Shown piece after piece: positions 2,727 to 28,643 of a stretch of DNA of 64,000 nt. The notes under the pieces are model-generated. The model was given only the letters and a program-made list of their open reading frames with translations, ran no database searches and had not been told where the DNA came from. A program made the translations under genes and the position numbers. Each line of letters begins with the position of its first letter. Position 1 is the first letter of the stretch. The stretch comes from Streptomyces sp. (lineage in GTDB: Bacteria > Actinomycetota > Actinomycetes > Streptomycetales > Streptomycetaceae), in assembly GCF_031181555.1 (NCBI RefSeq), contig NZ_JAPSKQ010000004.1, positions 1-64,000 on the forward strand. The letters run 5' to 3'.

Positions 2727-3617
2727 TCAGTGACGGTGAGCCGGGCTCGGCCCCTCTTCCCCGAGATCGGGCGGCTCGCGGTAGTCGACGCCGGACTCCG
2801 GCGGGATGAGGTCTCCGGATGCGGCGTCGGTGCAGTAGGCGTCGAAGACCTCTCCGGCGGTGAGGGGTTCGAGACCGTGGGCGCGCAGGCGCCAGCCGTA
2901 GATGCGGTCGTGGGTGCCGGGTGCGCTGGTCCGCATGACCAGTCCGCCGGGACTCCCGGTGGCGAGACCGACGGCCAGGACAGTGGTGAACTCGAGGGCT
3001 TCGGTCTCGTCCGGTCGCGTGCGGCCGGCGACGTCGTCGGCGTGCAGGACGGCGATGAGGGTCTCGGGTGATCCGGAGACGCTGCACACGAGGTGCCGGT
3101 CTCCGGGTGGGGCCGTGTCGAGGATGCGGGCGAGGAGCTGGGACGCGCGGGTGAAGGCGGCACCTCCCAGGTCCTCGCCGCACGAGGCACAGGGGCCGAG
3201 GCCGACGAGGAACGTGGTCGCGTACTCCCAGGTCGCCTGGCGAACGGCCTCGTCGACGAGGTCGGGCAGCAGATCGGCCAGGGGCTGGCCCTCGTAGGGG
3301 ACCGTGGGGCCGGTGGCCGCGATCTCGGCCGTGAACCGTGTGCGGCTGGTCCGGCTGTCGGGGTCGAGGCCCGCTTTCCTGCAGAACTCGGAGTACTCCT
3401 CGGGGTCGAAGAGGGCCAATGTGGTGTGGCTTCCCTGCCGTGCGCGTGTCCTGAGGACGGCCTCCACGTGTTTGAGGTAGGTGGCGTGGTCGTCGAAGGC
3501 GAAGCTCCGGTAGTGCCGCATGGCTCGGAAGTCGTGCTCGTCGGTCAGCAGGCCGATGGTGCCTGCGATTTCGTGGTGCAGAACGCGTCGCAAGGTTCGG
3601 TGGTCGGTGTACCCCAT
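2727..3617 (-). CDS. Conserved actinobacterial protein of unknown function (296 aa)
   Basis: I do not recognise a named family. The predicted protein is soluble, acidic and 296 residues long, with no signal peptide or membrane segment. A CxxC pair near the middle (GPCASCGED) could bind metal or be redox-active, but it is the only such pair. The start at 3617 (MGYTDHRTL) is preferred over an in-frame start 33 bases upstream because GGAGGGGGAG lies just before it. It is a single gene, convergent with ptsI across a shared terminator, and lies upstream of an acetoacetyl-CoA synthetase gene on the same strand with about 150 bases between them. Confidence 0.8.
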   Translation of the reverse strand: MGYTDHRTLRRVLHHEIAGTIGLLTDEHDFRAMRHYRSFAFDDHATYLKHVEAVLRTRARQGSHTTLALFDPEEYSEFCRKAGLDPDSRTSRTRFTAEIAATGPTVPYEGQPLADLLPDLVDEAVRQATWEYATTFLVGLGPCASCGEDLGGAAFTRASQLLARILDTAPPGDRHLVCSVSGSPETLIAVLHADDVAGRTRPDETEALEFTTVLAVGLATGSPGGLVMRTSAPGTHDRIYGWRLRAHGLEPLTAGEVFDAYCTDAASGDLIPPESGVDYREPPDLGEEGPSPAHRH

Positions 3618-3770
3618 GTCTCCCCCTCCGCACAGTCGATCAATGCTCACTCACAGTAACCGGCGGCACTGACAACGGCGGTGGGGAAGGGCGGTGGTCG
3701 ACCGGGACCTCGGACCCGCCGGATCGGGTGTCCGAGGTCGTCCACGGGCCTGTTCGCCTGCGGCGGGCGG

Positions 3771-15150: not shown

Positions 15151-15585
15151 CTACCCGCCCGAGGGCAGGTCGGTGCGCGGGGCGGCGCCCAGATGCGCAC
15201 CGACCCGCTTCACGAGAAGCGTCATCTCGTAGGCGACCTGTCCGACGTCCGAGTCGGCGTCCGTGAGGACGGCGAGGCAGCTGCCGTCACCGGCGGCCGT
15301 GACGAACAGGAACGCCTCGTCGAGTTCGACGACGGTCTGTCGGACGTCGCCCGCCTCGAAATGGCGGCCCACGCCCTTGGCGAGGCTGTGGAACCCGGAG
15401 GCGACAGCGGCCAGGTGTTCGCTGTCCTCGCGGGTCAGGTCCCTCGAGGCCCCCGTGGGCAGGCCGTCGCCGGAGAGCACGACGGCCTTGCGGATGCTCG
15501 CGACACGGTCCACCAGGTCGTCGAGGAGCCAGTTCAGCTCCCCCTTGTCGGTCGCGGTGTGGCCGGTGGCCTTCGGTGCGGTCAT
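15151..15585 (-). CDS. cvnB: Conservon roadblock/LC7-domain protein (CvnB)
   Basis: CvnB is a roadblock/LC7 protein, the class that typically regulates small GTPases such as CvnD. The 144-residue protein contains WLLDDLVDRVASIRKAVVLSGDGLP and a C-terminal EMTLLVKRVG segment, both typical of the family. Its ATG overlaps the cvnA stop codon by four bases (ATGA), a sign of translational coupling within the conservon. Confidence 0.93.
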   Translation of the reverse strand: MTAPKATGHTATDKGELNWLLDDLVDRVASIRKAVVLSGDGLPTGASRDLTREDSEHLAAVASGFHSLAKGVGRHFEAGDVRQTVVELDEAFLFVTAAGDGSCLAVLTDADSDVGQVAYEMTLLVKRVGAHLGAAPRTDLPSGG

Positions 15586-18500
15586 CGACCGTCCCCCTTA
15601 GTCGTTCGTCGTGGTGCTGTGCCGCTGCCGGCGTCGTCGCCCGCGGCGTTCTCCTCACGGCCGCGTTGCCAGCCCCGCTGGAGCGAAGCCATGCGGCTGC
15701 GTACCTCTTCCGCGTCCCGTTCGACGGGCTGGGACCTTTCCTCGTTCCGCCGTTCGGCGCCGCGCTTCAGCTGCGGGGCGAGGCTGGCCTGCCGTTTGCG
15801 CCGGGGCAGCGATCCGGCGTCGGGCCGCGCGGCGCCGGTGTCCTGTGCCGTGCCGCCGGATCCGGCCTCCGCTGTCGCGCCCGCGGCCGGTGTGGAGCCG
15901 TCCGGGCCGCTGGAGGCGATCGCGGGGCGGCGCGTACGCCCGGGAAGGAGCGCAGGGGGCTCCGGCGGAGCGTCGTGCTCTCGGCCGGAGGGCGCCGGGG
16001 TCTCGCTCGGTTCTCCGGCGCGACCACCGGCCCCGGGGCGGGCAGGGTCCGCGCCCCGTCTGCGGGTGGGGAGGGCCGGCAGCGTCTCCGTGTCCGGTTG
16101 TCCCTGCTCACGGTCCGCGGAGAGCCGTTCGGCCCGGCGGGCGGGGAGCGGGGAGGCGGGCTCCGGGCCCGTACGGCCGGTGCCCCGGCGTCCCGCCGGG
16201 CCCTCACCGCGGCTGCGGGTCGGAAGCGGCGGTGCCTCCGTTCCCGGGCGGTCCGACGAGGTGGTCGTGTCCCCGCCCGTCCGTTCCCGGCGGGGGCGCC
16301 GGTCTCCGACCGGGCGTCCGTGGGAGCTGACCAGCTTGGGTGCCCCCCGGCGGGGCAGCGGGACCGGGGCGCCCGTCCGGTCGTCCGCGTCCCGCTCTCG
16401 CCCCTCACGGGCACCGGGGGCCTGCTGATGCTGCTCGCGGCGCCGACCGGGCCACTCGTCCTCGGTGCGGGTGAGGGAGCGACGGGAGCGGAAGAGACCG
16501 CCGCGCTCGCTGTCCTCGTCGCCCAGCGCGCCGGGGAAGTCGGCGAGGGTGTCCAGATCGACCGGGGCTTCCAGTTCCACCGGTCCGTCCAGCAGCGAGG
16601 CGGGCAGCTCGGGCAACTGCACGGGCGTCTGGGAGAGCGCGGCGTGGCGGCTTCCCTCCGCTTCCCTGTCCTTGGCGCGCTGGGGCCGGTCGAGGCGGAA
16701 GCCGACGCCGTTGGTGTCCGGCACGTCGTCCGTCAGCAGCGCGTCGGGGATGAGGACGACTGCCGTGGTACCGCCGTACGGGGAGGGCTGGAGGGAGACC
16801 CGGATGTTCTGACGCTGGGCGAGGCGGCTGACCACGAAGAGCCCGAGCCGGTCGGTGTCGGTGAGCTCGAACTCGGGTGTCTCGGCGAGCCGGAGGTTGG
16901 CGTCCAGGAGCGCGTCGGCCGTCATGCCGAGCCCGCGGTCGTGGATCTCCAGGGTGAAACCGTTGGCCACGCGCTCGCCCAGGACCTGGACGGCGGTGTG
17001 CGGCGGCGAGAACACCGTGGCGTTCTCCAGGAGTTCGGCCACGAGGTGGGTGAGGTCGGCGACGGCCGGTCCGGTGACGGCGATCCTCGGCAGGCGGCGG
17101 ACCTCGATGCGTTCGTAGTCCTCGACCTCGGCGACGGCGGCGCGGACGACGTCCATGAGCTGCACGGGCTTGCGCCACTGCCGGGAGGGCGCGGCGCCGG
17201 AGAGGATGACGAGGCCCTCGGCGTGCCGGCGCATGCGGGTGGTCAGGTGGTCGAGGCGGAACAGGTCGGCGAGTTCCTCGGTGTCCTCGGTCCTGCGCTC
17301 CATGGTGTCCAGCAGGGTGAGCTGCTTGTGGAGCAGGACCTGGCTGCGGCGGGCGAGGTTGACGAACACCTCGGAGACGCCGGCGCGCAGTTCGGCCTGC
17401 TTGACGGCGGCCTCCACGGCGGCGCGCTGGAGGGTGTTGAGGGCCTGGCCGACCTCGCCCATCTCGTTCTTGTCGTACTCCAGCCGCGGGACTTCGGTCT
17501 CGACGTCGACCTGTTCGCCGGCCGACAGACGGCGCATCACACTGGGCAGCCGGACGCCGGACGCCTCGTGCGCCTCGAGACGCAGCTGCCGCAGGTCCCG
17601 GATGAGGCCGCGGCCGATGCGTACGGAGAGGAAGAGGGAGAGCAGGAGGGCGACCAGTCCGAGGGTGCTGGCGATGACGGCCCGGGCGATGACGCCCATG
17701 GCAACGGGACGGACACGGTCCTGGTAGCGGTCGGTGGCCTGGTCGTTGAGAGTGCCGAGCTCGGCGAGCACATGGCCGGCGGCGGTGTCCCAGCTCTTCG
17801 CGGTGATCCCGCGGGGCGGCCCGGCGCCGGAGGAGACGGCCGCCTCCTCACCCACGCGCAGCGGAGCGGACGCGGCGTTCTTCCAGAAGGACTCGTAGCG
17901 ATCGCGCTCGGACGCGGGCAGCAGCGGCAGGCCGGCGTCGTACATCAGCGTGCGCTGGGCCACGAGATCGGAGATGTCCCGCACTTCGGCGCGGGACAGT
18001 TCACCGACGATCAGGGCGGAGCCGAGCAGGGCGTCCTCCCGGGCGAGCAGTTCACGGGCGCGGGCCAGGTTGACGAGGGCCCGGTACTGCTTGTCCAGTT
18101 CGACGTCCTCGACCACGTGCAGATTGGCCAGCAGGGCGTAACACGGGTCGACCAGCCGGTTGTAGAGGTCGAGTGCCTGGGAGCGGTTGACGGTGCCGTC
18201 CTCGACGCTGCGGCGCAGGGACTCGATGCCGTCGAAGGAGTCCAGCACCGCGCTCAGTTCGCCGGAGCCCCCGTGCATGGCCTCGCGCACATCGGGGTCC
18301 GCCGCGCTCTCGCGGACACGGTCGACGGCCTTGTCGGTGGCGGCGCGGCTGCGCCGGAGGGCGGCGAGTCCGTCGGAGGCACGGGGGTCCGCGAGGTGAA
18401 CGAGGGTCTGCCGACGCTCCTGCTGGAGGACGCGGACGGTGTCCTCGACGGGGTAGCCGACCTCCTCCATCACCGACGACACATCGAACAGGTGGCTCGC

Positions 18501-18611
18501 TTCGCGACCGGTGAGGACCGTGGCGAAGGCCCAGATCGCCGTCAGGGACACCAACGGTACGAGAAGCAGCGCCACGATCTTCCGGCGGATGGACTTCCCG
18601 CGAAAGCGCAT
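15582..18611 (-). CDS. cvnA: Conservon membrane sensor histidine-kinase-like protein (CvnA)
   Basis: CvnA is the membrane sensor of the conservon. The protein has 1009 residues from the ATG at 18611, which follows GGGGGAGG. A transmembrane helix lies near residues 11-30 and a second near 305-328, enclosing an extracytoplasmic nitrate/nitrite-sensor-like helical domain. A HAMP-like segment follows, then an HATPase domain (about 490-640) with N-box LVAELLENATVFSPP and DRGLGM. No DHp phospho-acceptor is obvious, as usual for CvnA. The last 360 or so residues are Pro/Arg/Gly-rich and probably disordered. An in-frame upstream extension of 40 residues lies in intergenic sequence and is unlikely. 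It heads the leftward operon. Confidence 0.92.
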   Translation of the reverse strand: MRFRGKSIRRKIVALLLVPLVSLTAIWAFATVLTGREASHLFDVSSVMEEVGYPVEDTVRVLQQERRQTLVHLADPRASDGLAALRRSRAATDKAVDRVRESAADPDVREAMHGGSGELSAVLDSFDGIESLRRSVEDGTVNRSQALDLYNRLVDPCYALLANLHVVEDVELDKQYRALVNLARARELLAREDALLGSALIVGELSRAEVRDISDLVAQRTLMYDAGLPLLPASERDRYESFWKNAASAPLRVGEEAAVSSGAGPPRGITAKSWDTAAGHVLAELGTLNDQATDRYQDRVRPVAMGVIARAVIASTLGLVALLLSLFLSVRIGRGLIRDLRQLRLEAHEASGVRLPSVMRRLSAGEQVDVETEVPRLEYDKNEMGEVGQALNTLQRAAVEAAVKQAELRAGVSEVFVNLARRSQVLLHKQLTLLDTMERRTEDTEELADLFRLDHLTTRMRRHAEGLVILSGAAPSRQWRKPVQLMDVVRAAVAEVEDYERIEVRRLPRIAVTGPAVADLTHLVAELLENATVFSPPHTAVQVLGERVANGFTLEIHDRGLGMTADALLDANLRLAETPEFELTDTDRLGLFVVSRLAQRQNIRVSLQPSPYGGTTAVVLIPDALLTDDVPDTNGVGFRLDRPQRAKDREAEGSRHAALSQTPVQLPELPASLLDGPVELEAPVDLDTLADFPGALGDEDSERGGLFRSRRSLTRTEDEWPGRRREQHQQAPGAREGRERDADDRTGAPVPLPRRGAPKLVSSHGRPVGDRRPRRERTGGDTTTSSDRPGTEAPPLPTRSRGEGPAGRRGTGRTGPEPASPLPARRAERLSADREQGQPDTETLPALPTRRRGADPARPGAGGRAGEPSETPAPSGREHDAPPEPPALLPGRTRRPAIASSGPDGSTPAAGATAEAGSGGTAQDTGAARPDAGSLPRRKRQASLAPQLKRGAERRNEERSQPVERDAEEVRSRMASLQRGWQRGREENAAGDDAGSGTAPRRTTKGDGR

Positions 18612-19028
18612 GGCCTCCCCCAGCTCGCCCCCCGACCGGTCGGGGGCACACATGTGCGTCAACAAACGGCGCGAGCCTACTACCGAGCCACGGACAACTC
18701 GAAGAACTGTCCGGAGGTTGAAGTTCCGCACCGGCGGCGAGACATGGGGAGTTGTCCGGCCATTGCGGGAGATTGCCGCCCGCGATCAGGGGTGTTCCGC
18801 AGGCCGGCACCCCGGGCCCTGGAAGACGGTTGGCCGAATTCTTTCCTTGCCCGGGAATCTTCGTGACGTTCCGTTCGTCCTTCTCTGTGGGATATGGGGG
18901 CGGAATCGGCCACAGGAGCCGTGTCCCGCACCCGGGCGGCGTAAAACAGCGCAAGCCGGGCAGCCACTGGGAAACCGGGTCTTCGGACACGAGCGAGCGG
19001 TCTGCTGGCGGTGGGGAGTGACACGTTG
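18612..19028. promoter_or_regulatory. Divergent intergenic region between cvnA and a membrane-protein gene
   Basis: About 417 bases carry no recognisable gene and must contain the promoters for cvnA (minus) and the 168-residue membrane protein (plus). A GGGAAT element near 18861 resembles a sigma-R -35 box, but the -10 position reads GTC rather than GTT at the expected 18-base spacing, so I do not call it. No strong hairpin or known operator was found. Confidence 0.45.
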
Positions 19029-20614: not shown

Positions 20615-23600
20615 TCACCCGCTCGCCGGCGCGGGCCGCTTGAACATGCGTGTCGCCGTGATCTCGCTGTGCGCCTCCACCGCCGGGTCCTGCTGGGGCA
20701 GGCCGGGCCGGAGGTGTTCCTCCACGCTGATGTACTTCAGGCCGGCCCGGAGATCGGCGTCGTTGCGCAGCCGGATGACCAGGGGGAACTCCGCGAGCGC
20801 CGTCGTGTCGAACAGGCCCGTGGTGTACAGCAGTTGCACACCGAGCGCGTCGGCGACCGCCCGCTGGAGCTCCAGCAGATAGGTGGCGTTGGCGCGGCCG
20901 ATGGGGTTGTCGAGGAACAGGGTGCCCGCGTGCCGGTGCTTGTCCCGGCCCCGGTCGTTGGACCGCAGGGCGGCCATCGTGCAGTACAGGGCGATGGCCG
21001 CGGTGAGCAGCTGACCGCCGGAGAACACGTCGCCCATCTGCCCCACGGGGACGCGCTCGGCGCGCAGCACCGCATCGGGCTTGAGGATCTCCACGGCGAC
21101 GCCCTTCGGCTGGAGGGCGGCGGCCACGCCGCGCAGCAGCAGGGACATGCCGTCGCGCCGCAGGTCGGAGTTCTTCTTGACGGCCGACCTGGTCGCCTCG
21201 TCGATGACCTCGCCGAGCCGCTCGGTGAGCGTGGCCTGGTCGGGCTCCTCGAAACGGATGCGCAGGAACTCCTGCCCGGACCACTCGCCGAGCCCCTCGG
21301 GCAGCCGGGAGAGCCGCTGGGCGGAGCGCAGGGTGGCGAGGGCCGACTCCACGAGTCCTCTGAGCCGGTCCACGATGGAGTCGCGGTTCCGTTCCAGTTG
21401 CTCCAGCTCGTCGGTGAGGACGCGCAGCCGGGGCGCGAAGGCGTCCGCCCACTTCTGGGCGTGCTCGGGCAGTGCGGAGGCGGGCAGCTCGCGGATCTGC
21501 TGCCGCGCGGGGGTGCGGACCTGCTCGTAGCGCGTGGAGTTGGCGTGCCGGACGAGGACGTCGCTCGCCTCGCGCACGGCGGACTCGGCGGCGGACAGGT
21601 CCGCGGCGCAGCCGCGCAGCGAGCGGCGGGCCTCGGCGGCGGACTGCCGGGCCTCCTCCAGGCTGCCCGGGTAGGTCTCGGGCTGCTCCCGTTCCTCCTC
21701 GGGGGCGTGCTCGCGCAGCAGGTCACGGAGCATGGCCGCGATCTCGTCGAAGCCGCCGGCCGCGTCCTCGGCGGCGCGGTGCGCCTCGAGCAGTTCGGCG
21801 TGGGCCTCCCGGGCCTGGCTCAACGCCTCGCTGCGGGAGGCGAGTTCGGCCGTGGCGGTGCGCAGGAGGGCCTGTGCGTGCTCGGCGTCGCGCGGCACCA
21901 GCTCGTCGGGCAGCTCGGTGTGCGCCTCGCCGTTCTCGGGCGCGAGCCGCTCGGCCTCGCCGCGCAGCCGTCCGAGCTGCTCGCTCGCGCTGGACATGCG
22001 CGTCTCCAGGAGCTGCACCAGCTCCTCGGCGCGGGCGGCAGCGGCCTGGCGACTGGGCCCGTCGGAGCCGTCGGGCGACTGGAGCAACTGCTCCGCGCGG
22101 GTACGGACCTTGTTGCTGAGCCGGTCCAGTTCGGCGCGGGCCGCGCTCTCGTCGCTCTCCGCGCGGGCCTGTTCGGCGCGCAGATCGGCGCCGACACCGA
22201 CCTTCTCGTACACCTGGGACGCGGCCCGGTACGCCTCGCGCAGGGCGGGCAGCGACGCCTGCGGCGCCTCGGCGCCGTCCTCGGGCACGTCGTCGGGGGC
22301 ACCCGCGATCTCGGAGCGCTCGGCGCGCAGCGCACGCGCGGTGCGCCGGGCGTCGTCGGCGGCGCGCTGGGCACCGCGCCGGTCCTCGTCCGCGGCACGC
22401 GCGCGTTCCAGGCAGGCCTGGGCACGGGCCTCCGCCTCGGCCGCGTCGTCGGCCAGTTCGCGCAGTTTGACCTGCCAGCCGGCCCGTTCGCGCAGCCGGA
22501 ACGCGAGTCCGGCGAGGGCGTCGGCGGCGCGCCGGGCCTTCTGCGCGGCCTCCTGCCGCTCGTCACGGACCCGGGCGGCCTCGGCGGCGGCCTCCTCGGC
22601 CTCCGCGCGTACGGTGCGCGCCTCGGCCAGCTCGGCCTCCGCCTCCTCGGCGAACAGCCGCGCCTCGTGCGCCGCCCGCGCCAGCTCGGTGAGCCGGCCG
22701 GCCGGGCAGCCGGTGCGCCAGGAGGCGAGCCGCGCCGCGAGTTCGCGGTCCTTGCCGAGCCGGGCGGCGAGCGCCCGGATCTCCTCGTCCCGCGCGGTCG
22801 CCCGCGCGCGCAGCGCCTGCCGTTCTTCGTCGGCCGCGTGCTCGTCGTGCATGGCCGGGTTCGGCGGGACGAGGAAGACGTCCCCGGTGTCCGCGTCCGG
22901 CGCCGGGGTCGGGGCGAGCAGGGCGGCGGCCGTGCCGACGGCGACGGCGGACCGGGGCAGCAGGGCGGCGTCGCTCAGCGCCTCGCGGGCGCGGACGTGG
23001 GAGTCCGGGTCGGTGATGATGACGCCGTCGACGAGCTCGGGCCGGGCGGCCAGCACACGCGCGTGGTCGGCGGGGTCGACGGCCTGGGCGAGGTAGCGCC
23101 AGCCGGGCAGGGCCGGGATGCCGTGCTCGCCGAGGAACTCGACGGTCGCCAGCACGTCCGGGCCGGGCGGCAGCAGCCCGCCGTCACCGAGGGCGCCGAG
23201 GATGCGGGCGTCGTCGGCGGCGGCGGTGCGCAGCTCGAACAGCTGCCGCTCGGCGGAGGAGACCGCGTCGTCGAGCAGTTCGCGCAGGTCGTCGGCGAAG
23301 CGGTCGAGTTCCTCGGCGGTGAGGACGCCGTCGGCCGGGGTGCCGCTCGGTCCGGCGTCCGTGTCGTCCGTGCCGTGCCGGGGCCGCGGGACCGACGGTC
23401 GTGGAGCGGTGCCGGTCAGGCTCAGCAGCTCCGCCAGCCGCTCCTCGGCGGCGAGGGACTCGGCGGTGCGGCGCTCGCCCTCGTGGGCGCGCTCGGCAGC
23501 CGTGGCCGCGTCCGCCGCGCGGGCCGCGGTCAGCTCCGCGCGGCTCTCGGCGGCGGCCGCCTCGCGCGCGTGCTCACCGGCCCGGTGGGACGCCTCGCGG

Positions 23601-25255
23601 GCGAAGTCCCAGGCCGCGACCGCGGTCTTCTCGGCGTCGCTGGCCGCGAGGGCGGCCCGGGCGGGGTCGGCGTCGGGAGCACTGTCGTCGAGCCAGCCGG
23701 CCCGGACCGCCTCGGCGGTCTCCTGCTCGACCTCGGTGAGGCGCTGTCGCAGGTGCCCGATCTCGCTGCGGGCCCGCTGCGCCTCGGTGGCGGCGGCGGT
23801 GGAGTCGCGGTAGGCGGCGTCGCTGACCTCCTGGAGGGCGGCGGACCGCTCCTCCTCCTCGTTGGCGAGGCTCTCTGCGTTCTGCGCGGCGGCGTGCAGG
23901 GCGCGGACGAGGTCGACGGCGGCCTGGGCGCGCGCGGCCAGCGCGGGCGCCGCGTCCCGCTCGGCCTCCTGGATCGCGGCGGACACGCGCGCGACGCGGT
24001 CGGCGGCGGCGCGGTGGCGCAGCACGGCCTCGGCGGCCTGCCAGGCCGCGTACAGCGTGCGCGCGTCGGCGAGTTCGCGCTTCTGGGCGGCGGCGGACTT
24101 CTCGGCGGCGGCGAGCGCCAGGGAGGCGTGCCGGTAGGCGAGTTCCGCGGAGATCAGGGCGCTGCGCTCACGGGCCGCCTCGGCATGGGTGACGGCGTAC
24201 GCGGCGGCGGTGACCCGCTGCGCCAGGTCGGCCGCGCGGACGCGTTCCTGGGCGCCGCGCGCGGAGAGCCGGCGGGCCAGGGTGCGGGTGCGGCGCTCGG
24301 CGGCGGTGTGGATCTCCCGTGCGCGGGTGCGGGCGTCGGCGGCCTCGACGATCCGGCCGAGGAGGTCGACGGATCCCGCGGTGAAGTCCCGTTCGGCGAT
24401 CAGCTCGGCGCGTCGGCCCAGCTTGTTGCCGAAACCGCTGACCAGGTCGGCGAGCCCGTCGGTGTCCCGGGTGTCGGTGACGGCGCGCAGCAGCAGGTCG
24501 GTGAAGTCGGAGTCCTTCTTGACGGCGAAGAGACCGGCGGCCTCGCCCTCGTCGGCGTTCATCTCCCGCTGGTAGCGGAAGAGTTCGGGGTCGAGTCCCA
24601 GCTCGCCGAGGTGTTCGGTCCAGCGCTCGTGGATCTCCTCCCAGTGCACCTCGAGGTGCGGGTAGGTCCTGCCCGCCTCGGTGAGGGCGTCCCGGAAGCC
24701 CTTCATGGTGCGGCGCCGTCCCCGCGCGCCCGACTGGCCCTCGACGGGCGGCCGTACGGCCGTGGACTCGGCGACGGGCAGGTTGTCGAGGCTGAGGCCG
24801 GGACCGGGGCGGAAGGAGTACCAGGCCTCGGCGAACTTCCGCGGGTCGTTGGAGACCTGGCGGCCCCGCCACTCGCTGACCTTGCCGACGACGACGCACT
24901 CGCCGGTCTGTACGTGCTGCCACTCCAGCGCCACATGGCCGCAGTCGTCGGCGAGCAGGAACTTGCGCAGGACGCCGGAGCTGGCACCGCCGAGGGTGTT
25001 GCGGTGGCCCGGGAGCATCACGGAGAAGATCAGCTTCAGCAGGACGGACTTGCCGCCGCCGTTCTCCAGGAAGAGCACGCCGGCGGGCGCGGGCCGGCGC
25101 GGCGGGCCGACGGGCTCCTCCTCGAAGAACTCCGCCTGCGTCGGCGCGGGGTCGGGCACGGCCTCGCCCACACCGCGCAGGTCAAGCACGGTGTCGGCGT
25201 AGCGCGCACCGGCGGGCCCGATGGAGTAGAGGCGGACCCGGGACAGCTCGTACAT
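20615..25255 (-). CDS. SMC-like ATPase of a MukB/MksB/JetC-type condensin complex
   Basis: The 1546-residue protein has the SMC layout: an N-terminal ATPase half, a long Ala/Glu/Arg-rich coiled coil (about 300-650), a central folded hinge region (about 680-840, containing LPGWRYLAQAVDPADH), a second coiled coil (about 860-1330), and a C-terminal ATPase half. The ABC signature VFSGGQ lies at 1410-1415. The P-loop reads LENGGGKS (63-70), lacking the usual first Gly. Walker B reads LFLDNP, with Asn1450 where the catalytic Glu is normally found. The gene follows two smaller genes with 36- and 133-base gaps. Family-level call: MukBEF/MksBEF/Wadjet superfamily. Likely roles are chromosome organisation or defence against plasmids, but the role is not established here. 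Confidence 0.8.
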   Translation of the reverse strand: MYELSRVRLYSIGPAGARYADTVLDLRGVGEAVPDPAPTQAEFFEEEPVGPPRRPAPAGVLFLENGGGKSVLLKLIFSVMLPGHRNTLGGASSGVLRKFLLADDCGHVALEWQHVQTGECVVVGKVSEWRGRQVSNDPRKFAEAWYSFRPGPGLSLDNLPVAESTAVRPPVEGQSGARGRRRTMKGFRDALTEAGRTYPHLEVHWEEIHERWTEHLGELGLDPELFRYQREMNADEGEAAGLFAVKKDSDFTDLLLRAVTDTRDTDGLADLVSGFGNKLGRRAELIAERDFTAGSVDLLGRIVEAADARTRAREIHTAAERRTRTLARRLSARGAQERVRAADLAQRVTAAAYAVTHAEAARERSALISAELAYRHASLALAAAEKSAAAQKRELADARTLYAAWQAAEAVLRHRAAADRVARVSAAIQEAERDAAPALAARAQAAVDLVRALHAAAQNAESLANEEEERSAALQEVSDAAYRDSTAAATEAQRARSEIGHLRQRLTEVEQETAEAVRAGWLDDSAPDADPARAALAASDAEKTAVAAWDFAREASHRAGEHAREAAAAESRAELTAARAADAATAAERAHEGERRTAESLAAEERLAELLSLTGTAPRPSVPRPRHGTDDTDAGPSGTPADGVLTAEELDRFADDLRELLDDAVSSAERQLFELRTAAADDARILGALGDGGLLPPGPDVLATVEFLGEHGIPALPGWRYLAQAVDPADHARVLAARPELVDGVIITDPDSHVRAREALSDAALLPRSAVAVGTAAALLAPTPAPDADTGDVFLVPPNPAMHDEHAADEERQALRARATARDEEIRALAARLGKDRELAARLASWRTGCPAGRLTELARAAHEARLFAEEAEAELAEARTVRAEAEEAAAEAARVRDERQEAAQKARRAADALAGLAFRLRERAGWQVKLRELADDAAEAEARAQACLERARAADEDRRGAQRAADDARRTARALRAERSEIAGAPDDVPEDGAEAPQASLPALREAYRAASQVYEKVGVGADLRAEQARAESDESAARAELDRLSNKVRTRAEQLLQSPDGSDGPSRQAAAARAEELVQLLETRMSSASEQLGRLRGEAERLAPENGEAHTELPDELVPRDAEHAQALLRTATAELASRSEALSQAREAHAELLEAHRAAEDAAGGFDEIAAMLRDLLREHAPEEEREQPETYPGSLEEARQSAAEARRSLRGCAADLSAAESAVREASDVLVRHANSTRYEQVRTPARQQIRELPASALPEHAQKWADAFAPRLRVLTDELEQLERNRDSIVDRLRGLVESALATLRSAQRLSRLPEGLGEWSGQEFLRIRFEEPDQATLTERLGEVIDEATRSAVKKNSDLRRDGMSLLLRGVAAALQPKGVAVEILKPDAVLRAERVPVGQMGDVFSGGQLLTAAIALYCTMAALRSNDRGRDKHRHAGTLFLDNPIGRANATYLLELQRAVADALGVQLLYTTGLFDTTALAEFPLVIRLRNDADLRAGLKYISVEEHLRPGLPQQDPAVEAHSEITATRMFKRPAPASG

Positions 25256-25291
25256 GGCGGACTCTCGTAAGGCTTCGTGAAACGGCGGAGT

Positions 25292-26173
25292 TCAGGAGGA
25301 GTGGAACGGCAGGCCGGCGTCGGCGACGAGCTCCAGGGCGTCGGCGTCCTCGGGGGGCAGCAGGGTGGGCGTGCCGTCGGTGACCGGGACGACGCCCAGT
25401 TCCAGCAGCTCGGCCATGGCGGCGCTGCCCGCCATGTCGCGCACCTGGAGCTGGTAGCGGGCCGTGGTGCGGTACGTGCCGCCGTTGTCGTCGCCGGTGC
25501 GCTGCAGGAAGCCGGAGTCGGTGAGGAAGGCGACGGCCTTGGCGACGATGCCGGTGGTCGATCCCGCGAGCCGGCGCGCGTCCTTGGTGGCTCCGGTCGC
25601 GCTGCGTCTGGCCCAGATCCGCCAGGCGGCCTCCAGGCCGGGGGCGTCGCTGACCGGGTCGGTGTTCTCGCCCTGTTCCGCGGCCCGCTCCTCCAGCCGG
25701 TGGCAGGCCTGGCGCACGAAGGCGTCGACGCCGTTGACCGTGACGCGCCCGATGTAGCCGTCGTCGGCGAGGTCCTCCGGGCGCGGGAAGGCCATGGCGG
25801 CGACGGCGAGATGGGCGAGTCCGTGCAGGAACCGGTCACTGCCGTCGGCGGAGGCGCGCCGCGCGTAGTCGCCCATGCGCACCGCGAACACGGAGTCCTC
25901 GGCGGCGGTCACGGCCATCCCCGCGCGCGGGGACACCTCCAGCACGATCAGTCCGAGGCCGGTGGCCACGGCGTCGGCGAGCCGCGCGAACGGCGGGTCC
26001 TCGCGGTAGCGGCGCAGCAGGTCCGCGTACTCCTGGTCGCGGGCCGGCTGGAGCTTGGGCTGGAGGCCGAAGGCGACGAGCCGCGCCGCGTCGGCGGCGT
26101 CGGCGGGCGTGACGGCGGCACCGGCCGGTGTGGCTCCGGCCTCCGGCTCACTCCACTCGACGTGCTCGGTCAC
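25292..26173 (-). CDS. Probable MksE/JetB-like subunit of the SMC complex (293 aa)
   Basis: A soluble 293-residue protein encoded between the kleisin-like and SMC-like genes, where MukE/MksE/JetB subunits sit in related operons. Such winged-helix (KITE-type) dimers bind the kleisin and DNA. A helix-rich C-terminal part (TTGIVAKAVAFLTDSGFL followed by a short strand region) is compatible with a winged helix. I base the assignment mainly on gene order and size, because the family diverges strongly in sequence. The start is GTG at 26173 after AAGGAG. Confidence 0.6.
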   Translation of the reverse strand: MTEHVEWSEPEAGATPAGAAVTPADAADAARLVAFGLQPKLQPARDQEYADLLRRYREDPPFARLADAVATGLGLIVLEVSPRAGMAVTAAEDSVFAVRMGDYARRASADGSDRFLHGLAHLAVAAMAFPRPEDLADDGYIGRVTVNGVDAFVRQACHRLEERAAEQGENTDPVSDAPGLEAAWRIWARRSATGATKDARRLAGSTTGIVAKAVAFLTDSGFLQRTGDDNGGTYRTTARYQLQVRDMAGSAAMAELLELGVVPVTDGTPTLLPPEDADALELVADAGLPFHSS

Positions 26174-26306
26174 GGTTTCGGCTCCTTGCTCTTGAAAACA
26201 ACGGTGCGGTCGGCTCCTCCGGGGGCGCGGGGCGGGGTCGATCGCGGCCCCGCCGCGTGGGCCCGGCCGGCCCCCGCGGACTCGCGGCCGTCCTTCTGCG
26301 GAACCA

Positions 26307-27833
26307 TCACGCCGCCTCCGTCCGGTCCGCCGCCATCCCCGCCGCGTCCAGCAGCGCCGTGCCGACGATGAGGTCGGCCCCGCCGAACTCGGGGTCGTCG
26401 AGTTCGGTGCCGTCGTCCACGGCGAACAGCAGCTTCCGCTCGCCCTGGCGGTAGGCGGTGCCGACCGGCGGGCTGGCGGCGTGGATCGCCAGCAGGGCGA
26501 CCAGATAAGGCAGTTCGGGGTCCTGGCGGCGCGCGTCGGCGAGCAGTCCGGACAGCCGGCGCGGTGCGTCGGCCGGCAGGTCCAGCAGCGCCGTGGCGGC
26601 CGCCAGCTGCTCCTCGCTGAAGCGGCTGTCGTCCGGTGTGGCGATGAGGTCGGGCTCCGGCATCTCGGCGCCGAGGTGCTCCCGCTCCACGGGCGGCGTC
26701 AGCAGGATCTCGACGAGGTCGGCGACCCGGACGGACACCGGGGTGCGCAGTCCGGTGCCGTGGGCGAAGAAGGCGCCGGTGACCCGGGCCGCCTGCTCCA
26801 CGGGCAGCGGCAGCAGGGGCGCCAGGAGATGGCCGTACAGGTCCGTGCCCGATGCGGCCGTGGGGGTGGCGAAGGCCTGCCGGTCCTGCTCGGCGCGGAA
26901 CAGCGGGCCGGCCTCCAGCAGCCGGGACTGCAGCTGCGTGTGCCGCCGGATGCAGTCCTTGACGATGTCCACCAGCTCGGCGGCCCGCCGCTTGTGCTCG
27001 GGGTCCTCGGACTCGTCGCGGGCCTTGCGGATGTTGGTGAGGATCGCGTTCTCGTGGCGGTACCGGTCCGCCACGTGCTCCAGGGCCTCGGCGATCATGT
27101 CGGGTACGGCGCTCAGCCAGTCCACCGCGCGCACGTTGCGCCGGGTGGCCTCCAGCGCCCGGCGCAGGGTCTCGGAGTACTGCACGGTCCGGTAGCGGGC
27201 CTGTTCCGCGGCGAGCTGGGCGTCGGCGAGCCGGCCGCGGCTGATCAGCACCTCCAGCTTGACCTCGGCGGCGATCTGCGCGCTGGTGACGTCGGTGTCC
27301 AGGGCGCCGACCAGGACGTTGACGGCCTCGTCGGTGGTCCGCAGGTACACCGTGCCGCCGGGGCCGGGGACCTCCTCGATCAGCTTGAAGTCGTAGTCGC
27401 GGCGCACATAGGTGCCGTCCGCTTCGAACACGCCGTACACCGCGCGGAAGCCGCGGTCGACGCTGCCGACGTTGATCAGGTTCTCCAGGACCCAGCGGGC
27501 CACCCGCTCGTGCTCGGCGGCGGAACGGCGCGGGGCCTGGGCGGCGATGCGCGGGACGAGCCGGGCGACGATCTGGTCGTGGTCCGCGCCCGTGTCGAAG
27601 TCCATGTTCAGCGTGACGAGGTCGATGGCGGCCAGGGCGATCTCCGCCATGCCGTACACCGAGTACTCACCGGCCAGGTTGGCCTTGCGCGCGTCCAGGT
27701 CGTGCAGCGGCGCGGTGCAGGCGAGCGCGCGCAGCCGACGTGCCAGCCCTTCGTCGGCGGCCGGGCCCGGCGCGGGCCGCGGCCCCGCGCTGAGCTGGGG
27801 CGGAGCACTGTCCGTCGATGCAGGCGAAGTCAC
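26307..27833 (-). CDS. Probable MksF/JetA-like kleisin subunit of the SMC complex (508 aa)
   Basis: The first gene of the three-gene SMC operon. The 508-residue protein is largely helical and predicted soluble. It has a disordered Pro/Ala-rich start, an N-terminal helical domain (ANLAGEYSVYGMAEIALAAI), and a long helical middle (RYRTVQYSETLRRALEATRR to NAILTNIRKARDE) of the kind that forms the kleisin four-helix contact with an SMC neck. A C-terminal winged-helix-like part follows. Position, size and architecture fit MukF/MksF/JetA; direct sequence identity to a named family is not something I can confirm by eye. The start is GTG at 27833. Confidence 0.6.
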   Translation of the reverse strand: MTSPASTDSAPPQLSAGPRPAPGPAADEGLARRLRALACTAPLHDLDARKANLAGEYSVYGMAEIALAAIDLVTLNMDFDTGADHDQIVARLVPRIAAQAPRRSAAEHERVARWVLENLINVGSVDRGFRAVYGVFEADGTYVRRDYDFKLIEEVPGPGGTVYLRTTDEAVNVLVGALDTDVTSAQIAAEVKLEVLISRGRLADAQLAAEQARYRTVQYSETLRRALEATRRNVRAVDWLSAVPDMIAEALEHVADRYRHENAILTNIRKARDESEDPEHKRRAAELVDIVKDCIRRHTQLQSRLLEAGPLFRAEQDRQAFATPTAASGTDLYGHLLAPLLPLPVEQAARVTGAFFAHGTGLRTPVSVRVADLVEILLTPPVEREHLGAEMPEPDLIATPDDSRFSEEQLAAATALLDLPADAPRRLSGLLADARRQDPELPYLVALLAIHAASPPVGTAYRQGERKLLFAVDDGTELDDPEFGGADLIVGTALLDAAGMAADRTEAA

Positions 27834-27938
27834 GGTTCACAGACTAGGTCCTCGGTCTGACAACGGCCCAAACGAGGCAGGTGCGCCCCGGCGGCACGGT
27901 TGTCACACCCGTGTTCCGCCGCCGCGGACCGCCGTGGC

Positions 27939-28643
27939 TCAGCCGCCCTGCCCGTCCTCCCCGACCCGGCGCCGGTACACCTCCACCACCCGCTCCAGCG
28001 AGACGTCGAGGTACGCCGCGAGCAGTTGCTCGGCCTTCTCCCGGTCACCGGCCTGCAGCGCCTGGAGGATCTCGGCGTTCCGCGCGATGTACGGCTCGTG
28101 CAGCCGCCTGGGCTCGTCCACCACGTGGAAGGCGAGCCGCAGTTCGGCGAAGACGCTGCGCATCAGTTCGTCGGTGCGTTCGCTGGCGGCGAGGGCCACC
28201 AGCTCCCGGTGGAAGTGGATGTTGGCCGTACCCACACCTTTCCAGTCACCTTCGCGCGCCGCCCGGCGGCCCTCCTCCACCACCTCGGCGAGCGCGTCCA
28301 GTCCGTACGGAGGCTCGCCGAGGCCGCGCACGACGGCGCACTCGACGAGCCGCCGGGTGCGGTAGATGTCCTCGACGTCCTCGACGGTCAGCACCCGGAC
28401 GAACACGCCCCGGTTCAACTCGTGGACGAGCAGCCGCTCGTGCGTGAGCAGCCGGAACGCCTCGCGCAGCGTGTTGCGGGAAACCCCCAGCGCCCCGCCG
28501 ATGCTGTCCTCCGACAGCCGTGTCCCGGGCGGGAAGTACCCCTCGGCGATCCGGCTCCTGAGGATGTCCGAGACCCGCTCGGCCGTGCTGGTACGGCCCA
28601 GCAGGGCACGGTCGTCGGCCAGTCCCCTCAGCTCCTCTGCCAT
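27939..28643 (-). CDS. GntR-family regulator, FadR/FCD subfamily
   Basis: The 234-residue protein has an N-terminal winged helix ([40 protein letters not shown]) and a C-terminal all-helical FCD ligand-binding domain. Metal-ligand-type residues are visible in [10 protein letters not shown] and the [11 protein letters not shown] region. It is divergent from the MFS/D-glutamate-cyclase/pxpABC operon, with a perfect palindrome in the shared region. It most likely represses that operon and responds to a pathway acid such as 5-oxoproline or glutamate (inference). It lies 105 bases upstream of the SMC operon on the same strand, so read-through is possible. Confidence 0.9.

What the first reader, a model, noticed from the sequence alone, without database searches (positions are those of the whole stretch)
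20615..27833. Three-gene SMC (MukBEF/MksBEF/Wadjet-like) operon without an adjacent nuclease and with altered ATPase motifs
Seen: three leftward genes of 508, 293 and 1546 residues. The last has SMC-type head halves, long coiled coils and an FSGGQ signature. Its P-loop reads LENGGGKS, without the usual first Gly, and its Walker B strand ends LDNP, with Asn1450 in place of the catalytic Glu. Known: Wadjet (JetABCD/MksBEFG) systems pair kleisin, MksE and SMC subunits with a topoisomerase-VI-like nuclease JetD. Here nothing JetD-like lies next to the operon; the flanks are IclR and GntR regulators. Inference: this is either a chromosome-organising condensin of Streptomyces or a defence complex whose cutting subunit is lost or encoded elsewhere, with unusual ATP hydrolysis.
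Basis: partly seen in the sequence, partly recalled or inferred. Interest (0 to 1): 0.8.

Follow-up and report, generated by a model that had tools for sequence, protein, structure and literature searches.

The report
Nuclease-free Wadjet under DNA-damage promoter
Nearly every Streptomyces genome sampled carries, at a similar chromosomal place, a DNA-handling ring complex that descends from an anti-plasmid weapon but lacks its cutting part, and its promoter looks like the one that turns on DNA repair genes, so it may help these bacteria cope with DNA damage.

Summary
The three genes are real: JetA (kleisin, 508 aa), JetB (MukE-like, 293 aa) and JetC (SMC, 1546 aa) of the type III Wadjet family. 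No JetD nuclease is adjacent or detected in this (86.8% complete) genome. This is no local loss. JetA is in 193 of 199 genus genomes and in all 278 family genomes of an order-wide sample, while 169 of the 199 have no detectable JetD of any type. The operon keeps its surroundings, is under purifying selection, and its JetC forms one clade among JetD-bearing type III JetCs.

New: a RecA-NDp element (TTGTCRGTG-N8-TAnnnT, the motif of the ssDNA-sensing damage activator PafBC) ends 7 nt before the jetA start. It is present in 20 of 20 freshly fetched orthologues (shuffles: 6 of 10,000). The same pattern precedes recA, uvrA, radA, ruvC, ligA, xseA and ogt in this genome.

The altered ATPase motifs are real but shared by JetD-bearing relatives.

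Best reading: a Wadjet domesticated in Streptomycetaceae into a DNA-damage-inducible SMC complex that handles DNA without cutting it. Function is inferred; induction and phenotype are untested. At least three JetD-bearing systems share the promoter, so a non-cutting defence role stays open.

The parts
26307..27833 (-). jetA: type III Wadjet kleisin subunit (JetA3), 508 aa, GTG start
   Evidence: PADLOC PDLC00567, 620.8 bits; model best matches a MukBEF entry, 9gm7_C, E 6.2e-4
25292..26173 (-). jetB: MukE/JetB-like subunit, 293 aa
   Evidence: No PADLOC/Pfam model; homologous to the JetB beside JetD in L026 and L024; the 12 best Foldseek matches are MukEF, MukBEF or Wadjet JetABC entries, best E 0.02
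20615..25255 (-). jetC: SMC subunit (JetC3), 1546 aa
   Evidence: PADLOC PDLC00588, 1417.8 bits
25046..25069 (-). JetC P-loop codons, LENGGGKS (residues 63-70)
21011..21025 (-). JetC signature motif codons, FSGGQ (residues 1411-1415)
20903..20914 (-). JetC Walker B codons, LDNP (residues 1448-1451; Asn1450 where Glu is usual)
27841..27863 (-). RecA-NDp (PafBC-type) promoter element TTGTCAGAC-N8-TAGTCT; its -10 box (27841-27846) ends 7 nt before the jetA GTG
   Evidence: 62-locus alignment, own-genome pattern search, 20 further orthologues and shuffles, window shuffles, element alignment
27939..28643 (-). Conserved upstream neighbour: GntR/FCD regulator (context, not a subunit)
   Evidence: found upstream in 7 of 8 genus loci

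Best explanation
A type III Wadjet complex that lost (or never had) its JetD nuclease in an ancestor of Streptomycetaceae and was kept as a core chromosomal gene set. Shown by sequence: JetA-JetB-JetC are kleisin, MukE-like and SMC subunits; JetD is absent across the clade; the operon starts from a RecA-NDp (PafBC-type) DNA-damage promoter pattern shared with recA, uvrA, radA, ruvC and ligA. Inferred: single-stranded DNA at damage activates PafBC, which directs RNA polymerase to the jetA promoter; JetABC then loads on DNA and uses its ATPase cycle to entrap, tether or loop-extrude it; without JetD it does not cut, so it compacts or holds the damaged chromosome during repair, working like MksBEF/MukBEF or Smc5/6.
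For: Core status and absence of JetD. JetC clade of 14 core rows, support 100/100, among 16 JetD-bearing rows. Conserved context and position 8-20% from a contig end in 20 long contigs. dN/dS 0.07-0.29. RecA-NDp element in 13 of 14 representative core loci in relaxed form, 8 of 14 exact, and in 20 of 20 further orthologues, 19 exact, against 6 of 10,000 shuffles. Same pattern before RecA, UvrA, RadA, RuvC, LigA, Ogt, XseA and others: 11 of 29 sites precede repair, recombination or helicase families; reversed pattern 0. Precedent: MksBEF of P. [quoted passage not shown]
Against: No expression, binding or phenotype data. One core locus of another genus (L271) has no recognisable TGTCRG box. Three JetD-bearing systems (L026, L254, L257) carry the same promoter, a fourth (L262) a relaxed match further upstream, of 15 tested, so the promoter alone does not prove a repair role. 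PMC9380542 says an initial search did not find the M. smegmatis PafBC motif conserved in S. venezuelae (passages). JetC lacks the usual Walker B Glu, so its motor activity is itself unproven. Published S. venezuelae Hi-C work with smc does not mention such a complex under the terms searched (PMC8410768).
Confidence: 0.58

Rival explanations
1. Nuclease-free defence: JetABC still targets plasmids or phages but compacts or silences them instead of cutting, as Smc5/6 does with extrachromosomal circles, and is induced when invader ssDNA activates PafBC.
For: Family origin in defence; JetD-bearing L026, L254 and L257 share the promoter; Smc5/6 restricts extrachromosomal circles (PMC10586767, passages).
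Against: Core, vertically kept locus in a fixed position, unlike the JetD-bearing copies found in only 14 of 199 genomes at strong scores; repair-gene regulon.
Confidence: 0.2
2. Housekeeping condensin (MksBEF-like) that organises the linear chromosome at all times; the damage promoter only raises its level.
For: Core status; MksBEF precedent.
Against: The promoter found is the damage type, placed for a leaderless start; no second promoter was looked for by experiment.
Confidence: 0.12
3. The complex still cuts, with an unrelated nuclease or a rare JetD supplied in trans.
For: Not every gene of the predicted regulon has a known family; JetA shows no clear loss of a JetD contact surface (inconclusive).
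Against: No JetD of any type in 169 of 199 genus genomes, though JetA is in 193; in the loci read, JetD3 sits beside its own JetABC; no conserved fourth gene in the core operon.
Confidence: 0.08
4. A decaying remnant of a Wadjet system.
For: JetD is missing.
Against: Near-universal retention and open frames in nearly all listed hits, dN/dS well below 1, kept motifs and promoter.
Confidence: 0.02

Closest known systems
Wadjet type III (JetABCD; JetC3/DUF3584 in PADLOC)
   Same: JetA3 and JetC3 profiles, JetB homologue, gene order A-B-C, same P-loop and Walker B variants
   Different: No JetD; core to a family rather than scattered; RecA-NDp promoter in nearly all core loci, against 3-4 of 15 JetD-bearing ones
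MksBEF / MukBEF condensins
   Same: Three subunits without nuclease; JetA and JetB models match MukBEF/MukEF entries
   Different: No sequence-level match to solved structures; different lineage (type III Wadjet); damage-type promoter
RecA-NDp / PafBC DNA-damage regulon of Actinobacteria
   Same: Promoter pattern and target genes such as recA, uvrA, ruvC (regulon in PMC8223512, passages)
   Different: An SMC complex was not named as a member in the passages read; PafBC control in Streptomyces is unproven (PMC9380542)
Smc5/6
   Same: Analogy only: an SMC complex linked to DNA damage and to extrachromosomal DNA
   Different: No homology tested; recalled, plus PMC10586767 passages

Membership tests
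Wadjet type III | JetC3-type SMC subunit | tested here: met
   PDLC00588, 1417.8 bits
Wadjet type III | JetA3-type kleisin | tested here: met
   PDLC00567, 620.8 bits; MukF-like model
Wadjet type III | JetB (MukE/KITE-like) subunit | tested here: met
   36-45% identity to JetB of JetD-bearing relatives in 4 of the loci; weak but consistent MukE/JetB fold matches
Wadjet type III | JetD nuclease in the operon | tested here: not met
   so not filed as a complete Wadjet system
Wadjet type III | Restriction of circular plasmids | not testable with these tools
   needs transformation assays
MksBEF/MukBEF condensin | Kleisin, MukE-like and SMC subunits, no nuclease | tested here: met
MksBEF/MukBEF condensin | Sequence-level membership of MukB/MksB | tested here: not met
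   profiles of JetA, JetB and two JetC head regions matched no MukBEF chain; PADLOC places JetC in JetC3
MksBEF/MukBEF condensin | Organises the chromosome | not testable with these tools
   needs deletion mutants and Hi-C
PafBC/RecA-NDp regulon | TTGTCRG...TAnnnT element with the regulon's spacing before the gene | tested here: met
   (consensus itself recalled)
PafBC/RecA-NDp regulon | PafBC-dependent induction by DNA damage | not testable with these tools
   needs RNA-seq or ChIP-seq with a pafBC mutant

The most novel reading that the evidence does not exclude
Streptomycetaceae turned an anti-plasmid Wadjet into a DNA-damage-inducible, non-cutting SMC complex that protects their linear chromosome: a bacterial functional counterpart of Smc5/6, running on an ATPase without the usual Walker B glutamate and controlled by a PafBC-type regulon not yet established in Streptomyces.
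Probability: 0.4. Interest if true: 0.87.

Novelty: new variant of a known kind. Interest (0 to 1): 0.73.

Why it matters
It is a genus-wide SMC complex that I did not find described in one of the best studied bacterial genera, and an apparently independent case (type III lineage) of a defence SMC without its nuclease becoming fixed. It bears on how defence and chromosome SMC complexes interconvert. It makes two open questions directly testable: whether Streptomyces has a LexA-independent, PafBC-type damage response, and what JetABC does to DNA without JetD.

Tried and rejected
JetD in trans: searched with JetD3 (PDLC00594) and JetD_C (PF09983) over the same 199 genus genomes; a hit in 30 only. 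Local or assembly loss: rejected, since no JetD lies beside JetABC in 8 further genus loci or 5 loci of other genera of the family (L016 ends soon after jetC). ATPase motifs as a mark of this operon: rejected, family-wide.

The 44-codon ORF between jetA and jetB (26175-26308) has no Pfam match and the gap varies from about 30 nt (L015) to about 310 nt (L016), so it is not taken as a part. Sequence profiles of JetA, JetB and two JetC head regions found no meaningful solved structure. A search of JetA for core-specific changes in a possible JetD contact surface gave 7 scattered mild substitutions, inconclusive. Papers: PafBC with Wadjet gave one paper, on WYL regulators near defence islands (listing only); DUF3584 with Streptomyces gave none; the Actinobacteria defence survey PMC10482375 does not mention a core JetD-less operon in the passages shown. 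The library holds open-licence papers only, so 'not found described' rests.

Full report
WHAT IS THERE. Three minus-strand genes at 27833-26307, 26173-25292 and 25255-20615 encode 508, 293 and 1546 residues. PADLOC identifies the first as JetA3 (620.8 bits) and the third as JetC3 (1417.8 bits). The second has no PADLOC model, but neither have the JetB proteins of two JetD-bearing relatives, L026 and L024. Pfam and NCBIfam give nothing above their cut-offs. AlphaFold models (mean pLDDT 75 and 74) match, for JetA, a MukBEF entry (9gm7_C, E 6.2e-4; that this chain is MukF is my inference) and, for JetB, MukEF, MukBEF and Wadjet JetABC entries as its 12 best matches (best 3rpu_D, E 0.02; none reaches 0.001). 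Scores are weak but the direction is consistent.

NO JETD, ACROSS THE CLADE. The window's genome has no JetD hit, but it is incomplete. In 199 genomes of the genus JetA is found in 193 (191 of 193 of high quality); three of the six without it were searched again and stayed without. In an order-wide sample of 293, all 278 genomes of the family have JetA, against 2 of 15 outside it. In a phylum-wide sample JetA is in 13 of 296 genomes. JetD3 is found in 20 of the 199 genus genomes at E<=1e-5, 14 of them strongly (E<=1e-49); JetD_C in 24 at E<=1e-3; together 30, which leaves 169 with neither. In each of the 14 strong genomes one JetD3 gene was read in its surroundings and lies beside a divergent JetABC (in L259 jetA is cut off by the contig end); second copies in G380 and G438 were not read. 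Five genomes of other genera of the family have JetABC without JetD3. Outside the family, 4 of 6 JetA-bearing genomes searched have JetD3 (in G504 and G086 it is on another contig than JetA); the other two are G279, whose jetC looks broken in L023, and G497, where no JetB or JetC was found near JetA.

HISTORY. The JetC tree of 30 rows puts the 14 core rows in one clade (100/100), with JetD-bearing lineages around it; the nearest sister is only moderately supported (93/88), the root is the midpoint, and the program warns of long branches. The operon keeps its neighbours (GntR in 7 of 8, MFS in 6 of 8 genus loci) and lies 8-20% from the nearer end of 20 long contigs. dN/dS against the window is 0.07-0.29 over 8 orthologues of each gene, like the neighbouring GntR gene, 0.17-0.22 over 4. 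The simplest history is one loss of JetD in a family ancestor, then selection to keep JetABC.

THE PROMOTER. Aligning 62 upstream regions showed a nearly invariant block before the jetA GTG. Here it reads TTGTCAGAC-N8-TAGTCT; in many less close species TTGTCRGTG-N8-TAATCT. This is the RecA-NDp pattern (consensus recalled; this promoter type is described for S. coelicolor SCO6735, with S. rimosus recA cited, in PMC5087735, passages). The -10 box ends 7 nt before GTG, as for a leaderless transcript (inference). The element is present in relaxed form in 13 of 14 representative core loci, exactly in 8; the miss is L271, of another genus. In 20 further orthologues fetched as a test, 20 carry the relaxed and 19 the exact form, against 6 of 10,000 shuffled regions. 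Thirty distinct elements keep both boxes; the spacer is conserved in closer species and differs in the more distant ones. In the window the pattern occurs twice, and in 100 shuffles never.

THE PATTERN MARKS A REPAIR REGULON. In the whole genome it has 29 sites, and none when read backwards. Downstream of 11 of the 29 are RecA, UvrA, RadA, RuvC, LigA (start 186 nt away), Ogt, XseA, an AlkZ-like glycosylase, a protein with the RecD2 HHH domain, an SNF2 protein and a DEAD-box helicase. One site is jetA's own. The others include a sigma factor, MoaA, YjbR, a hydrolase, a SUKH-4 protein, a MarR-like regulator, DUF2797, a SWIM protein, proteins without a family hit, and a few that I did not scan; some TTGTCGG sites may be chance. 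This bears on PMC9380542, which says that an initial motif search did not find the M. smegmatis PafBC motif conserved in S. venezuelae and leaves open whether such a response exists (passages).

ATPASE MOTIFS. Walker B is DNP in 14 of 14 core and 16 of 16 JetD-bearing rows. The P-loop is LENGGGKS in all 14 core rows and [ER]NGGGK[ST] in 12 of 16 JetD-bearing rows; one reads DNGTGKT (L266) and three read QNGGGKG (L026, L254, L257; in L257 it lies in a different frame from the rest of jetC). How type III JetC hydrolyses ATP is a question for the whole family; no solved relative was found by sequence.

MECHANISM. Shown: subunits, absence of JetD, conservation, promoter pattern. Inferred from PafBC biochemistry (PMC11804915, passages) and from Wadjet and MksBEF work (PMC10586767, passages): ssDNA activates PafBC, jetABC is transcribed, and JetABC entraps or extrudes DNA without cutting, helping repair or segregation of the linear chromosome. 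Against it: no experiment, and 3 of 15 JetD-bearing systems (L026, L254, L257) share the promoter, with a fourth relaxed match in L262. So a non-cutting defence role stays open. Membership: works like a nuclease-free Wadjet/MksBEF; not filed as a complete Wadjet system because JetD, a defining part, was tested and not found.

Noticed in passing
window 3653-3675 (-), ORF 2730-3617 (-): A second RecA-NDp match lies 35 nt upstream of a 296-aa ORF without a Pfam family: another predicted damage-regulated gene in the window.
   Followed up: partly
G000, 29 sites (L094-L122): A PafBC-type regulon appears to exist in Streptomyces, although PMC9380542 reported the mycobacterial motif as not conserved in S. 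venezuelae.
   Followed up: partly
L026:5918-5940; L254 and L257 upstream of jetA: JetD-bearing type III Wadjet systems of one subclade also carry the RecA-NDp element, so some complete Wadjets may be damage-inducible.
   Followed up: partly
L026 and L254 jetC P-loop; L257: P-loop reads QNGGGKG, without the Ser/Thr after Lys, in a JetD-bearing subclade; in L257 it lies in another frame than the rest of jetC.
   Followed up: partly
G438:C1 66624 and 8038764; G380:C1 15696 and 9222617: JetD3 copies near both ends of linear chromosomes, in G438 with equal scores, as if in terminal inverted repeats.
   Followed up: no
about 8-12 nt upstream of the RecA-NDp element of core jetA: A CGTTT block is invariant in all 30 distinct elements, outside the known boxes; it may be a further regulatory contact.
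   Followed up: no
L023: A type III locus outside the family in which jetC looks broken and no JetD was found.
   Followed up: no
window 15582-18731 (-): Downstream of jetC lies a NIT-domain histidine kinase; the same N-terminal sequence recurs near jetC in most of the other genus loci.
   Followed up: partly
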